A stretch of DNA of 64,000 nt from Alphaproteobacteria bacterium. Its GTDB lineage: Bacteria > Pseudomonadota > Alphaproteobacteria > UBA9219 > RGZA01. A program made the position numbers and the translations under genes. How positions within the stretch are numbered: position 1 is the first letter of the stretch; every line of letters starts with the position of its first letter. The notes beneath the pieces are model-generated. The model worked only from the letters and a program-made list of their open reading frames with translations, was not told where the DNA came from and did not search any database. Below are positions 53,535 through 59,508 of the stretch, one piece after another. The stretch lies in contig JAKFVN010000003.1 in NCBI GenBank assembly GCA_021732145.1, forward strand, positions 1 to 64,000, given 5' to 3'.

Positions 53535-53999
53535 ATGAAATTGGAATACCGCTATTTTTCTCCTGATGATGGAATGCATATTCAACCGTTCCTGGCGCAC
53601 AGTAATCCCGTAGGCGATAATCCCGTAGGCGATAATCCCGTAGGCGATAATCCCGTAGGCGATAATCCCGTAGGCGATAATCCCGTAGGCGATAATCCCG
53701 TAGGCGATAATCCCGTAGGCGATAATCCGGTTTTACAGCGCAAAATGGGGACGGGTGTCTGCCGCGCCAGCAACCTGCCGCTGAATTGCGCGGTTAATAT
53801 CGGCACGCATGCAGGGCTTGGGCATGGCCATTATCAACAAACCATCTGCGTTGAACCGCACAAGGAAAATGCGGAATGCTTATGCAAAGACCTGGAAGGC
53901 AGGAATGCAATTATTTATCCCTTCGGCTTTTCCGAAACTGCAACGCAAAAATCATTCTGTATGCCAAGCGATGCACGCAATAGCCACGCAGGAACCTAA
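53535..53999 (+). CDS. Truncated FkbM-like methyltransferase ORF with NPVGD tandem repeat
   Basis: 154 residues. Residues 24-66 are eight NPVGD units from a 15-bp tandem repeat, with a ninth beginning. The part after it resembles the core of FkbM-family methyltransferases: VNIGTHAGL (SAM motif region), ICVEPHKENAECLCKDL and IIYPFGFSE. The usual ~100 C-terminal residues are missing, because the frame stops just after a segment recalling the family's N-S-G turn. Likely a decaying gene; the frame downstream shows no clear continuation. The only plus-strand ORF beside the cluster promoter. Confidence 0.5.
   Translation: MKLEYRYFSPDDGMHIQPFLAHSNPVGDNPVGDNPVGDNPVGDNPVGDNPVGDNPVGDNPVGDNPVLQRKMGTGVCRASNLPLNCAVNIGTHAGLGHGHYQQTICVEPHKENAECLCKDLEGRNAIIYPFGFSETATQKSFCMPSDARNSHAGT
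53604..53728 (+). repeat. Tandem repeat, 15-bp unit, eight perfect copies
   Basis: AATCCCGTAGGCGAT is repeated eight times without a mismatch (53604-53723), then a ninth copy diverges after AATCC. The unit length is a multiple of three, so copy number can change without breaking the reading frame. Confidence 0.97.
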
Positions 54000-54112
54000 A
54001 GCTCATGAATTATATGGCATAATTGGGAATTGACGGCGGAGTCGTGCTTGCCGCATACTCCCAGTTCCCGCCTGTACCTTGTACCACCTCCCTCTCCAGA
54101 AGGTTTCCTTCC

Positions 54113-54700
54113 ATGACAAAAATTCTTGAAAAACTTTACCCTGCTTTGACGCTCAGCGTTGTGCTGGCACTTGCAGTTTCATTTGGCTTGCATAGCAGCC
54201 TCATGAATGATGCTGCGCAGATGGTCACGCTGCACATCAACGTTGCGGTTTGGCTGCACGTTGTAGCCGGCATTTTATGGATTGGCTTGCTGTGGTATTT
54301 CAACTTCGTGCAAATCCCGACCATGTCGAAAATTCCTGCCGAACTGAAGCCGGCTGTTGGCAAATTCATTGCGCCGGAAGCCTTGTTCTGGTTCCGCTGG
54401 TCGGCACTGGCGACCGTTATCACCGGCTTGCTGGTTGCATACATCAAGGGCTATCTGGTTGCCGCGCTAACCTTTGAAAGCAGTCGTACCATTGGTTTAG
54501 GCATGTGGCTAGCGCTGATTATGGCTGCAAATGTCTGGTTCATTATCTGGCCAAACCAGCAAAAGGCATTAGGCATTGTCACGGTTGATGACGCAACAAA
54601 AGCAAAATCGGCACGCATCGCCATGCTGGCATCACGCACCAACTTCGTCTTGTCCCTGCCAATGCTGTATTGCATGGTATCGCAAAACATCGCTGGCTAA
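54113..54700 (+). CDS. PuuD-type membrane protein (Urate_ox_N family), without cytochrome domain
   Basis: 195 residues with about five transmembrane helices. LHINVAVWLHVVAGILWIGLLWYFNFVQIP and PEALFWFRWSALATVITGLLVAY match the membrane domain of PuuD urate hydroxylases, with conserved membrane histidines. Characterised PuuD carries a C-terminal cytochrome c domain, which is missing here. No purine-catabolism genes are nearby, so urate as substrate is uncertain. ATG 54113 is preceded by AGAAGG. Confidence 0.68.
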   Translation: MTKILEKLYPALTLSVVLALAVSFGLHSSLMNDAAQMVTLHINVAVWLHVVAGILWIGLLWYFNFVQIPTMSKIPAELKPAVGKFIAPEALFWFRWSALATVITGLLVAYIKGYLVAALTFESSRTIGLGMWLALIMAANVWFIIWPNQQKALGIVTVDDATKAKSARIAMLASRTNFVLSLPMLYCMVSQNIAG

Positions 54701-54782: not shown

Positions 54783-55769
54783 CTACGCGTTAGCGGCAAG
54801 ACCAGCGGTTTTCAACAGATCCAAATCGGCAATCGTATCGTTATTTGGCGTGGTCAGAAGTTTTTCGCCGTAAAAGAATGAATTCGCGCCAGCCAGCAGG
54901 CACAGCAATTGTGCTTCGCGGCTTAACATTGAACGCCCCGCTGATAAACGCACGCGCGCCTTTGGCATGGTAATGCGCGCAACCGCCACCATGCGCACCA
55001 GATCAATCGGATCAACGGGTTTTTGTTTTTCAAGCGGCGTTCCCTTTACAGCCACCAGCGCATTGATGGGTACGCTTTCCGGATGCGGTGTGAGATTCGA
55101 TAAGGTCTGCAACAAGCTTGCGCGGTCGCGCGTGGTTTCACCCATGCCGATAATGCCGCCGCAGCACACCGTAATGCCCGCATCGCGCACATGCGATAAG
55201 GTTTCCAAACGGTCATCGTAATCGCGCGTTGTAATCACATTGCCGTAATATTCGGGCGATGTATCAAGGTTGTGGTTGTATGCGGTAAGGCCTGCATTCT
55301 TCAATTTCTCGGCCTGGTGCTGTTTCAGCATGCCCAGTGTCACGCAGGCTTCCATGCCCAATTCGCGCACGCCTTCTACCATTTTGCATACCGCATCAAA
55401 TTCCGCGCCGTCTTTTACTTCGCGCCACGCCGCGCCCATGCAGAAACGCGCCGCGCCCGCCGCCTTGGCGGCGCGCGCTTTTTCTAAAACGGCATCCACC
55501 TGCATCAGGCGTTCTTTGGCAACGCCGGTTTCCTTGGCGTGATGCGCGCTTTGCGGGCAATAGCCGCAATCTTCCGGGCAGCCGCCCGTTTTAATCGAAA
55601 GCAGGCTGGCAAGCTGCACATCATTGGGTTGATGCGCGCGGTGAACAGCGCGCGCATGATCCAGCAATTCAAATAGCGGCAATTCAAGCAAGGCTTGAAT
55701 TTCGGCGACTGTCCAATCGTGACGCGTCGCAGAATTGGGGGAAGAATTCGAAATAGTGCAATCTGGCAT
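54783..55769 (-). CDS. bioB: Biotin synthase
   Basis: 328 residues. The radical-SAM [4Fe-4S] motif is C64-x3-C68-x2-C71 ([13 protein letters not shown]). SAHH follows, then [24 protein letters not shown] and the conserved Arg in [10 protein letters not shown]. It inserts sulfur into dethiobiotin. ATG 55769 replaces the longer frame to 55892, which would overlap bioF. Divergent from bioF with 53 bases between their starts. Confidence 0.97.
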
Positions 55770-55822
55770 GGGATTATTGAATGGTTCTGGATGGTTTCGA
55801 AATGTTTCCTTATTATAGAGAC

Positions 55823-56911
55823 ATGACCCGTTTATCTGCAACCCTGTCAAAGTTACGTGAAGAAGGCCGCTTTCGCGTCCTTTCACCGGCAATCGGCATT
55901 GACTTTACCTCCAATGACTATTTGGGGTTCAAGGCGCATCCCGCCTTGCGTGCTGCTGCGGTTGAAGCATTGGAAAACGGACTTGATATCGGTTCGGGCG
56001 GCTCGCGCCTGCTGCGCGGTAATCACCCCGCGCATGAGCAGCTGGAACATGAAGCCGCCCAGTTTTTTGGCCAGGAGCAAGCACTTTTTTTCGGCAGCGG
56101 GTTTTTAGCCAATCACGCGTTGATGACCGCGCTTCCTACCAAAGATGATATTATTTTATTCGATGCGCTTGTTCATGCCAGCCTGCGCGGTGGCATTCAA
56201 AGCAATCCCGCCAAACATATCCGCATTCCGCATAATGATGCGAATGCGCTTGAAGAAAATCTGAAAGCCAATTCCGGTAAAACCTGCTGGGTGGTTCTCG
56301 AAAGCATCTATAGCATGGATGGTGATTTCGCGCCGCTATCTGACATCATCATGCTTTGCGAAAAATACAATGCAATGCTGGTGGTGGATGAAGCGCATGC
56401 CACAGCTGTGTTCGGCGAAAAGGGCAAAGGCCTGACCTTTGGCCATCACTCACCAAATCTCATCACGCTGCACACTTGCGGTAAGGGGCTGGGCGTTGCG
56501 GGGGCGCTGGTTTGCGCATCCAGTGAAATCATGGAAACCCTTATAAACAAGGCCCGGCCATTCATTTATTCAACCGCGCCCATGCCGCTGCAAGCCGTAC
56601 TTGTCAGCAAAGCATTGCAGTTGTGCGCTGGCGCTGATGAACAACGCACCAAACTATTTGCGTTGTGTGAACTGGCAAGAAAAAACTTCCCCTGCCCGCC
56701 ATCGCCCACGCCCATCATCCCCCATATTCTGGGTGATGAACAAAAAGCACTCGCCGCTGCCACAGCAATGCAAGCCAAGGGCTTTGATATCCGCGCCATT
56801 CGCCCACCCACCGTACCCAATGGTTCATCACGCCTGCGCATCACACTGAATGCAACTTTGCGTGAACAGGACGTGATGGCACTTGCTAGCGCGCTGCAAG
56901 GCATTGCATGA
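55823..56911 (+). CDS. bioF: 8-amino-7-oxononanoate synthase
   Basis: 362 residues, PLP-dependent alpha-oxoamine synthase. [49 protein letters not shown] and the PLP lysine in [13 protein letters not shown] are visible. It condenses pimeloyl thioester with alanine to KAPA. ATG 55823 is taken because homology starts there; 55781 is possible. A TTATAGAGAC stretch directly before the ATG resembles one half of the alphaproteobacterial BioR box. Stop overlaps bioD (ATGA). Confidence 0.93.
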
Positions 56912-57543
56912 GCAAGAAATTTATTATCACAGGAACCGGAACGGGCATTGGCAAGACGCTGACCTCCGCCATGCTCATGCTTGGGCTTGATGCTGATTAT
57001 TGGAAACCCCTTCAAAGTGGATATGGGCAAAGTGGCACGGAAACCGATACCAACACATTAAAGAAACTGACCCAGCTTCCCGCCAGCCGTTTTCATAACG
57101 AAGCCTATGCGTTTGAAATGCCCGCATCCCCGCATATTGCCGCGGAAAGCGAAGGCCGCGCGGTTGATATCGCCAAGCTCAAACCACCCCATACGCCGCG
57201 CACATTATTGATTGAAGGCGCAGGCGGATTAATGGTTCCCGTCACCCGCACCGTGCTGATGATTGATGTGTTCAAGCAAATGAATGCGCCGGTTATTTTA
57301 TGCGCACGCACGGAATTAGGCACCATTAACCACACGCTTCTTTCGGTTCAGGCGTTAAAAGTGCATGGCATTCCTCTGCACGGAATTATTTTTTTGGGGC
57401 CGGAAAACAACGATACCATCAAAACCATCATTGATTTTTCGATGGGCAAATTGCTGGGACACATTCCCACGCTTCCGGAGATTTCAGCGGACACTTTATT
57501 GGATACATTCAATTCCAATTTCAATCGGGGCGATTTCGAATGA
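56908..57543 (+). CDS. bioD: Dethiobiotin synthetase
   Basis: 211 residues. The P-loop GTGTGIGKT is near residue 9, followed by YWKPLQSG, LIEGAGGLMVPVT and an RTELGTINHTLLS segment. It closes the ureido ring of DAPA with CO2 and ATP. Overlaps bioF and bioA by four bases each, so the three are translationally coupled. Confidence 0.95.
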   Translation: MSKKFIITGTGTGIGKTLTSAMLMLGLDADYWKPLQSGYGQSGTETDTNTLKKLTQLPASRFHNEAYAFEMPASPHIAAESEGRAVDIAKLKPPHTPRTLLIEGAGGLMVPVTRTVLMIDVFKQMNAPVILCARTELGTINHTLLSVQALKVHGIPLHGIIFLGPENNDTIKTIIDFSMGKLLGHIPTLPEISADTLLDTFNSNFNRGDFE

Positions 57544-58808
57544 ACACATCACCCCTCTGGCACCCCTTTACCCAGCATGCGCTGCAAGACAGCGAAGTAT
57601 TGATTGATCGCGCATCGGGCGCATCGCTGTTCACGAAAGATGGCCGGGAGATTATCGACGGCATTTCATCATGGTGGGTAAATACGCACGGCCATTGCCA
57701 TCCTAAGATTGTGAATGCGGTGCAGGAACAAGCCGCCAAGCTGGACCAGGTTATTTTTGCGGGTTTTACGCACCAACCCGCCGAAGAACTGGCAACCGAA
57801 TTGCTGAAATTCACGCGCGGCACTTTTAATCATGTGTTTTTATCGGATAGCGGTTCAACGGCGGTTGAAGCCGCGCTGAAAATGGCTATCGGCACTCACG
57901 CGCATCATGGCAAGCCGCGCCACACCATCGTGGCGCTGGAACATGGCTATCACGGCGACACCTTCGGCGCGATGGCCACTGGCGCGCCATCTGTGTTCAA
58001 TGAAATTTACGCTCCGTTTTTATTCAAGGTTGAACGCCTGCCATTCAACAATATGGTCGATGCGTTCAAGGATTTATTGAAAAAGAATGGCGCAGATATC
58101 GCCGCGCTTATTCTTGAACCGCTGGTGCTTGGCGCGGGCGGCATGAAAATCTATCCGCCGGACATTTTGAAACAGCTTACTGAGCTGTGCAAAGCAAGCG
58201 GCGTTATTTTAATTGCCGACGAAGTAATGACGGGCTTTGGCCGCACGGGCATGCGCTTTGCGTGCGAACAGGCAAACATCACGCCTGATATCATGTGCGC
58301 ATCCAAAGGCATTACGGGCGGGTTATTGCCGCTTGGCGCAACGCTGTGCAGCAAAGAAATCTATCAGGCATTCTATCAAAAAGATAAATCGAAGACGTTT
58401 TGGCATTCATCATCCTACACCGGCAATGCGCTTTCCTGCGCGGCGGCGCTTGCCAATTTAAAACTCTGGCAGGAAAATAACACGGATGAAGTGATTAAGA
58501 ATGTCAGCGCCATGCAGGCTACACAGTTAAAACGCCTTGAAAAACACCCGTTAATCGCGCATCCGCGCCAATGTGGCACTATTCTAGCGTTTGAGGTTTG
58601 CCATAACGAGCAAGGTTATCTATCTTCTGTCGCACCGCAGCTTTATCAGTTTTTCTTGGAACGCAATATTTTACTTCGCCCGCTTGGAGATACCGTTTAT
58701 GTCCTCCCTCCATACTGCATCAATGAAACGCAGCTCGCCCGTATCACTGACACATGTCTCGCGGCCGTGGATGCTATCAGGGCTGGAAACCTTAAATCAG
58801 CCGCTTGA
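57540..58808 (+). CDS. bioA: Adenosylmethionine-8-amino-7-oxononanoate aminotransferase
   Basis: 422 residues, class III PLP aminotransferase. WHPFTQH opens the protein, then DGISSWWVNTHGHCHP (SAM/KAPA pocket), LSDSGSTAVEAALKMAI, ADEVMTGFGRTG and the PLP lysine in CASKGITGG. It transaminates KAPA to DAPA with SAM as donor. The next gene begins 110 bases before its stop in another frame. Confidence 0.95.
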   Translation: MNTSPLWHPFTQHALQDSEVLIDRASGASLFTKDGREIIDGISSWWVNTHGHCHPKIVNAVQEQAAKLDQVIFAGFTHQPAEELATELLKFTRGTFNHVFLSDSGSTAVEAALKMAIGTHAHHGKPRHTIVALEHGYHGDTFGAMATGAPSVFNEIYAPFLFKVERLPFNNMVDAFKDLLKKNGADIAALILEPLVLGAGGMKIYPPDILKQLTELCKASGVILIADEVMTGFGRTGMRFACEQANITPDIMCASKGITGGLLPLGATLCSKEIYQAFYQKDKSKTFWHSSSYTGNALSCAAALANLKLWQENNTDEVIKNVSAMQATQLKRLEKHPLIAHPRQCGTILAFEVCHNEQGYLSSVAPQLYQFFLERNILLRPLGDTVYVLPPYCINETQLARITDTCLAAVDAIRAGNLKSAA

Positions 58809-59454
58809 AGCGCGTTTCCGTGCATTCCTTACCCGCATCATCCAGGATGATGAAACACATGGGCGTTTTTTAAACACGCTGTCGCTGCTGGAGCATATTG
58901 GCAGCCGCAAAATCATGCTCTCCCACATTTCCAGAAGCCCGAATGGCGAAGTGCTGAAGCACATGGCGGAAGAAGCGCGCCACGCTTATTTCTTCAGCCA
59001 CAAGGCCGAAGCGCTATTGAAAAAACCGCTGGATGATTATTCCCCCGCCACCACGCTGGCACCCGCTGCCGCCAAAATGTATTTCGGCAAGCTGGATAGT
59101 TTTATTGAGCATGCTATAACTGCCCCAAAGAACGACGACCGTCGTTCCGCGAGCTTATGCGAGCGAAGCCCTGTGGCGTCTGAACACCAATCTTCTGCGT
59201 GTTATTTATGGGTGTCGCTGATGATTGAACTGCGCGCGCATTGGGCCTATGGGCTGTACCAAACCGTGTTGCAGCAGCACCAGAAATCCTTAAGCCTGAA
59301 AAGCCTGATTGCGGAAGAAAACATGCATCTGGCAGAGATGTTTGACAACGTGATGGCGCTGGATGCCAGCGCGGAGGCCACCATTCCGCAACTGGCCGCG
59401 CATGAACATGCGTTATTCGTGTATTTCTTTGAACAGCTGGAAAACGCTGTTTAA
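58699..59454 (+). CDS. Di-iron ferritin-like protein in the biotin operon
   Basis: 251 residues. The four ligand-bearing helices of a di-metal carboxylate protein can be read: E65 (LLEHIGSRK), E92-A-R-H95 (EEARHAYFF), E177 (LMIELRAHW) and E207-N-M-H210 (AEENMHLAEM). ATG 58699, preceded by GGAGATACCG, lies inside bioA and overlaps it by 110 bases, implying coupling. Residues about 144-162 are encoded by a palindromic repeat inserted in frame between helices two and three. Reaction unknown; an oxidative step feeding or repairing biotin synthesis is inference from context. Confidence 0.72.
   Translation: MSSLHTASMKRSSPVSLTHVSRPWMLSGLETLNQPLEARFRAFLTRIIQDDETHGRFLNTLSLLEHIGSRKIMLSHISRSPNGEVLKHMAEEARHAYFFSHKAEALLKKPLDDYSPATTLAPAAAKMYFGKLDSFIEHAITAPKNDDRRSASLCERSPVASEHQSSACYLWVSLMIELRAHWAYGLYQTVLQQHQKSLSLKSLIAEENMHLAEMFDNVMALDASAEATIPQLAAHEHALFVYFFEQLENAV
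59130..59183 (+). repeat. Palindromic repeat element, copy 1 (inside coding sequence)
   Basis: A perfect stem GAACGAC-GACC-GTCGTTC is followed by a 23-base block (59148-59170) identical to copy 2 and a similar tail. It contributes residues such as DDRRSASLCERSPVAS to the ferritin-like protein without breaking the frame. Identity to copy 2 is 45 of 54 bases. Confidence 0.85.
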
Positions 59455-59508
59455 GGGCGGCGACCGCCGACCCGCGAGCTTATGCGAGCGAAGCCATGCG
59501 GCGTTTGA
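59455..59508 (+). repeat. Palindromic repeat element, copy 2 (intergenic)
   Basis: The same layout as copy 1: GGGCGGC-GACC-GCCGACC, then the identical 23-base block (59473-59495). Two stem positions differ from copy 1 by paired changes (A-T to G-C) that keep the pairing, and the GACC loop is unchanged. It begins directly after the ferritin-like gene's stop and ends six bases before the convergent epimerase gene. Confidence 0.85.

What the first reader, a model, noticed from the sequence alone, without database searches (positions are those of the whole stretch)
58699..59454. Di-iron ferritin-like protein embedded in the biotin operon
The sequence shows E65, E92/H95, E177 and E207/H210 in di-iron-carboxylate spacing, and the start overlaps bioA by 110 bases. 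bioC, bioH, bioZ and the P450 BioI are not in the window. Di-iron proteins of this fold can cleave or oxidise carbon chains. Inference: it may supply the pimeloyl moiety, or another oxidative step, by a route not described.
Basis: partly seen in the sequence, partly recalled or inferred. Interest (0 to 1): 0.7.

Follow-up and report, generated by a model that had tools for sequence, protein, structure and literature searches.

The report
BioE-type pimeloyl oxygenase in biotin operon
The gene most likely encodes BioE, a recently described two-iron enzyme that cuts long fatty acyl chains down to the seven-carbon precursor of the vitamin biotin; here it turns up in Alphaproteobacteria, which the published BioE survey does not list, and a relative is carried by a group of phages.

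Summary
Observation confirmed. ORF 58699-59454 carries E65, E92xxH95, E177, E207xxH210 (invariant in 30 operon homologues) and overlaps bioA by 110 nt. It is the last gene of a mobile bioBFDA cassette: it adjoins bioA in every alphaproteobacterial carrier found except one (G276), across four families and several genomic contexts. The window's genome has no BioC above cut-off, no BioZ paralogue (only FabH beside plsX), no P450 and no BioW. 'Supplies pimeloyl' is therefore well supported; 'by a route not described' is not: BioE, a ferritin-like di-iron oxygenase cleaving C14-C18 acyl-ACP/CoA to pimeloyl thioester, was published in 2025. Ligand spacing is the same (27-3-...-30-3), and 10 of 14 other published functional BioE positions match (slid controls 0-4). 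No characterised BioE sequence was reachable, so a direct alignment is missing. New here: BioE in Alphaproteobacteria; about ten gain/loss events beside otherwise intact bioBFDA, leaving lineages with no visible pimeloyl source; an in-frame genome repeat adding 19 residues; and a homologue fixed beside the capsid gene of one phage group. No activity was tested.

The parts
58699..59454 (+). BioE-type ferritin-like di-iron oxygenase gene (ligands E65, E92, H95, E177, E207, H210)
57540..58808 (+). bioA; its last 110 nt overlap the bioE-type gene
   Evidence: TIGR00508 526 bits, over cut-off; overlap
56908..57543 (+). bioD
   Evidence: TIGR00347 129 bits, over cut-off
55781..56911 (+). bioF
   Evidence: best family TIGR00858, 354 bits, below its cut-off of 426; context
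54783..55892 (-). bioB, divergent from bioFDA; the listed TTG start overlaps bioF, the true start is probably an ATG near 55769
   Evidence: TIGR00433 393 bits, over cut-off
59128..59183 (+). dispersed repeat copy lying in frame inside the gene; gives the 19-residue insert missing from orthologues
   Evidence: low pLDDT at 145-160
59453..59508 (+). second copy of the same repeat, starting at the stop codon of the gene
   Evidence: 84% identical

Best explanation
The gene encodes an alphaproteobacterial BioE. Most likely the protein binds two irons in a helical bundle through E65, E92, H95, E177, E207 and H210, takes a long-chain acyl-ACP (or acyl-CoA) into a hydrophobic channel, activates O2 with electrons from a cellular reductase and cuts the chain at C7-C8 to give pimeloyl thioester, which BioF uses; BioA, BioD and BioB finish biotin. 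Shown here: ligand set, helical fold, conserved coupling to bioBFDA, and no recognisable BioC, BioZ, BioI or BioW in the window's genome. Inferred from characterised BioE: substrate, cleavage position, product and O2 requirement.
For: Ligand spacing 27-3-...-30-3 equals that of CpBioE (E41, E68, H71, E140, E170, H173) and EmBioE (E26, E53, H56, E125, E155, H158). 10 of 14 other published BioE channel or interface positions match, against 0-4 when the map is slid by 1-6 residues, and 3 of 6 for ADO at the third ligand. Adjoins bioA, overlapping it in one relative frame, across families and different flanking genes. No BioC over cut-off, no second KAS III, no P450, no BioW in G000. Loci with a BioC-like gene beside bioF lack it. 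Profile A1 matches aldehyde deformylating oxygenase, to which BioE's di-iron centre is likened.
Against: No direct alignment to a characterised BioE. 18 loci of the same BioA clade lack the gene (10 changes on the tree), so it is not inseparable from bioBFDA. Homologues in phages and in G276 lie away from bio genes. No curated family matches the window protein.
Confidence: 0.8

Rival explanations
1. A di-iron oxygenase that feeds the biotin pathway by another reaction: cutting at another carbon, using a free acid or an aldehyde, or acting elsewhere in the pathway.
For: The fold and the distant profile match are shared with aldehyde deformylating oxygenase; residues W33, F39, L146 (CpBioE) and K46 (EmBioE) are not matched by the window protein.
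Against: Most published BioE channel residues match, and the only step missing from the genome's biotin pathway is the pimeloyl source.
Confidence: 0.1
2. An accessory protein, for instance one that stores or supplies iron for BioB or protects it from oxygen.
For: Ferritin-like fold; repeated loss beside intact bioBFDA; weak matches of some members to an encapsulin ferritin-like cargo family.
Against: The substrate-channel positions of an oxygenase are conserved; in this genome no other pimeloyl source is recognisable.
Confidence: 0.06
3. A passenger gene with no role in biotin synthesis.
For: Many losses beside intact bioBFDA; homologues in phages and in G276 lie outside bio loci.
Against: Linkage holds across families and different flanking genes, with an overlapping start.
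Confidence: 0.04

Closest known systems
BioE (Elizabethkingia meningoseptica and Chlamydia psittaci; PMC12915131)
   Same: Six ligands at the same spacing; 10 of 14 other published functional positions; place beside bio genes; no BioL-type regulator seen next to it, as in Chlamydia.
   Different: Alphaproteobacterial, last gene after bioA; the loop between the second and third ligand is about 6 residues shorter without the insert; this copy carries a 19-residue repeat insert. Sequence identity not measured.
Cyanobacterial aldehyde deformylating oxygenase (ADO; PF11266, TIGR04059)
   Same: Ferritin-like fold and di-iron ligand pattern; profile match E 2.7e-4; Foldseek probability 0.99 for 8fhc_A.
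   Different: Weak similarity, below curated cut-offs; residues after the first ligand and at -8 and -5 from the third differ; bio-operon context.
BioI (cytochrome P450, Bacillus subtilis)
   Same: Same overall conversion, oxidative cleavage of long acyl-ACP to pimeloyl-ACP.
   Different: Haem enzyme; no P450 in the window's genome.
BioZ (KAS III-type, Alphaproteobacteria)
   Same: Same role as pimeloyl source; in some Alphaproteobacteria found with bioBFDA (general knowledge).
   Different: Unrelated protein and chemistry; no second KAS III in the window's genome.

Membership tests
BioE | Six di-iron ligands E, ExxH, E, ExxH at spacing 27-3-...-30-3 | tested here: met
BioE | Published substrate-channel and carrier-interface residues | tested here: met
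   10 of 14 in the window protein, 0-4 in slid controls; partial, not complete
BioE | Whole-length similarity to EmBioE or CpBioE | not testable with these tools
   no characterised BioE sequence could be obtained
BioE | Located with biotin synthesis genes | tested here: met
BioE | Genome without other pimeloyl routes | tested here: met
   for G000; BioH not searched
BioE | O2-dependent conversion of long acyl-ACP/CoA to pimeloyl thioester; rescue of E. coli bioC/bioH mutants | not testable with these tools
   needs experiment
Aldehyde deformylating oxygenase | Match to PF11266 or TIGR04059 over the curated cut-off | tested here: not met
   no match for the window protein; best member E 0.016 and 0.022
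Haem-oxygenase-like di-iron proteins (PF14518) | Match to PF14518 | tested here: not met
   no match in the whole genome
BioZ | KAS III domain | tested here: not met
   no Pfam match for the window protein

The most novel reading that the evidence does not exclude
BioE-type chain cleavage is also used by viruses: one group of tailed phages carries a BioE-type oxygenase as a lone auxiliary gene between capsid and head protease, diverting host acyl-ACP into pimeloyl thioester (biotin) or otherwise reshaping host fatty acids during infection.
Probability: 0.35. Interest if true: 0.65.

Novelty: new member of a known kind. Interest (0 to 1): 0.45.

Why it matters
It extends the newest known pimeloyl route to Alphaproteobacteria, a class known for BioZ, and shows bioE travelling with bioBFDA as a cassette and being gained or lost many times. 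Genomes such as G006 that keep bioBFDA with no recognisable pimeloyl source pose a testable question. The phage copies suggest the reaction may be useful to viruses.

Tried and rejected
Haem-oxygenase-like fold (PF14518): no match in the genome. BioC in G000: best hit 112 bits against a cut-off of 185; by its sequence it reads as an NDUFAF5-type methyltransferase beside a comF-like gene. Second match in the genome (G000:C2:85623-85781): coincides with another copy of the dispersed repeat at 85683, not a paralogue. Plasmids and INPHARED phages: no match. BFVD fold search: nothing convincing. Second viral scan with A4: nothing. Search for a substitute gene after bioA where bioE is missing: mostly dnaN follows, no shared replacement. 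OSB synthase phmmer hits (E 0.03) dismissed as chance. PNAS 2025 BioE paper not held.

Full report
Observation. The ORF at 58699-59454 (+) is intact, 251 aa. The start lies 110 nt inside bioA, after a GGAG motif. bioF, bioD and bioA precede it on the same strand and bioB is divergent (the bioF score is below its curated cut-off although bioF is its best family).

Distribution and context. A protein search of the window's order finds homologues in 6 of 33 genomes; a class-wide sample finds 5 of 385, a phylum-wide sample 1 of 398, the window's own genome. In the order of G348, 24 of 142 genomes have it, all in one family. In every cellular case but G276 the gene adjoins bioA. In the nine overlaps measured it overlaps bioA by 32-110 nt, always in the same relative frame. 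Downstream genes differ: rfb-type genes in the window's genus, mostly dnaN in f138, others elsewhere. This is what a functionally coupled cassette, inherited or transferred together, looks like. The copy in G013 is split over two reading frames, a frameshift or an assembly error.

What else could supply pimeloyl. Among carriers other than G276, no BioC passes its curated cut-off in those tested, none of the tested has BioW or a P450. G000, G007, G008, G267 and G348 have exactly one KAS III; in G000 it is FabH beside plsX. G013, G019 and G144 have a second, weak KAS III match that was not resolved. BioH was not searched genome-wide. In the order of G348, 8 loci with bioA have a BioC-like gene near bioF, with a BioH-like gene in 7; these lack the ferritin-like gene and their BioA forms its own clade. 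In the window's order, G010 has a BioH-like gene beside bioF and a BioC-like gene at 162 bits, and G009 a BioC-like gene at 131 bits, both below cut-off; both lack the ferritin-like gene.

An awkward fact. Eighteen BioA of the cassette clade come from loci without the gene, and the tree needs 10 changes of presence/absence. In most of these loci dnaN follows bioA and no shared substitute gene is seen. G006, in the window's family, is one of them and also lacks recognisable BioC, BioZ, BioI and BioW. So the gene is not inseparable from bioBFDA.

Identity. BioE is a ferritin-like di-iron oxygenase, likened to cADO, that converts C14-C18 acyl-ACP (EmBioE also acyl-CoA) to pimeloyl thioester, needs O2 and bypasses BioC-BioH in E. 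coli (PMC12915131). Its ligands have the spacing 27-3-...-30-3 in both characterised proteins; ours is the same. From the published text I took 14 further functional positions anchored on the ligands: the window protein matches 10, its operon homologues 9-11 except L026 with 6, the phage-type proteins 7-8; sliding the map by 1-6 residues gives 0-4. On the ADO stretch available, 3 of 6 positions at the third ligand match. [quoted passage not shown] I could not obtain a characterised BioE sequence, so membership rests on these positions, the fold and the context rather than on a direct alignment.

Fold. AlphaFold2 with 16 sequences gives mean pLDDT 81.5 and seven helices, with very low confidence only at 1-21 and in the repeat-derived insert, 145-160. 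Foldseek finds no PDB hit at E 0.001 or better; the highest probability in the list shown is an ADO-active protein, 8fhc_A (0.99; TM 0.50/0.58), among ferritins, Dps and TenA. Profile A1 hits ADO at E 2.7e-4, profile A4 only at 0.06.

Insert. A 56-nt repeat lies in frame inside the gene (59128-59183), with an 84% identical copy at the stop codon. It accounts for the 19-residue insertion absent from orthologues. The core occurs 16 times in the genome with up to two mismatches, control 0. In behaviour it resembles Rickettsia palindromic elements (general knowledge; membership not tested).

Phages. Sixteen IMG/VR contigs carry a homologue (33-41% identity), with no bio genes in the stretches held. 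In all 16 it lies next to the capsid gene on the opposite strand, and where the contig reaches far enough head protease and portal genes follow; head genes are 76-100% identical, so this is one phage group. G276's cellular copy, away from bio genes on a 9-kb contig, groups with the phage proteins. Whether these make pimeloyl is unknown: ligands are kept, but R70 is H and V172 is M.

Verdict. This is most likely a new, alphaproteobacterial member of the BioE family.

Noticed in passing
L068-L083 (e.g. L069:6007-6672, L073:6001-6714): One group of tailed phages carries a lone BioE-type gene on the strand opposite the capsid gene, between capsid and head protease.
   Followed up: partly
window 59128-59183 and 59453-59508; also G000:C2:83082, 85683, 119599 and other contigs: Dispersed 56-nt repeat, core found 16 times in the genome (control 0), here inserted in frame into a conserved enzyme; it resembles Rickettsia palindromic elements.
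   Followed up: partly
L084 (G006), L199-L217: Loci with cassette-type bioA (most with bioBFD) but no bioE-type gene; G006 also lacks recognisable BioC, BioZ, BioI and BioW, so its pimeloyl source is unknown.
   Followed up: partly
L020:9836-10509 (G013): The bioE-type gene is split over two reading frames; frameshift or assembly error.
   Followed up: no
window 53535-53999: ORF with about nine tandem NPVGD repeats, near a Urate_ox_N-like membrane protein at 54023-54700.
   Followed up: no
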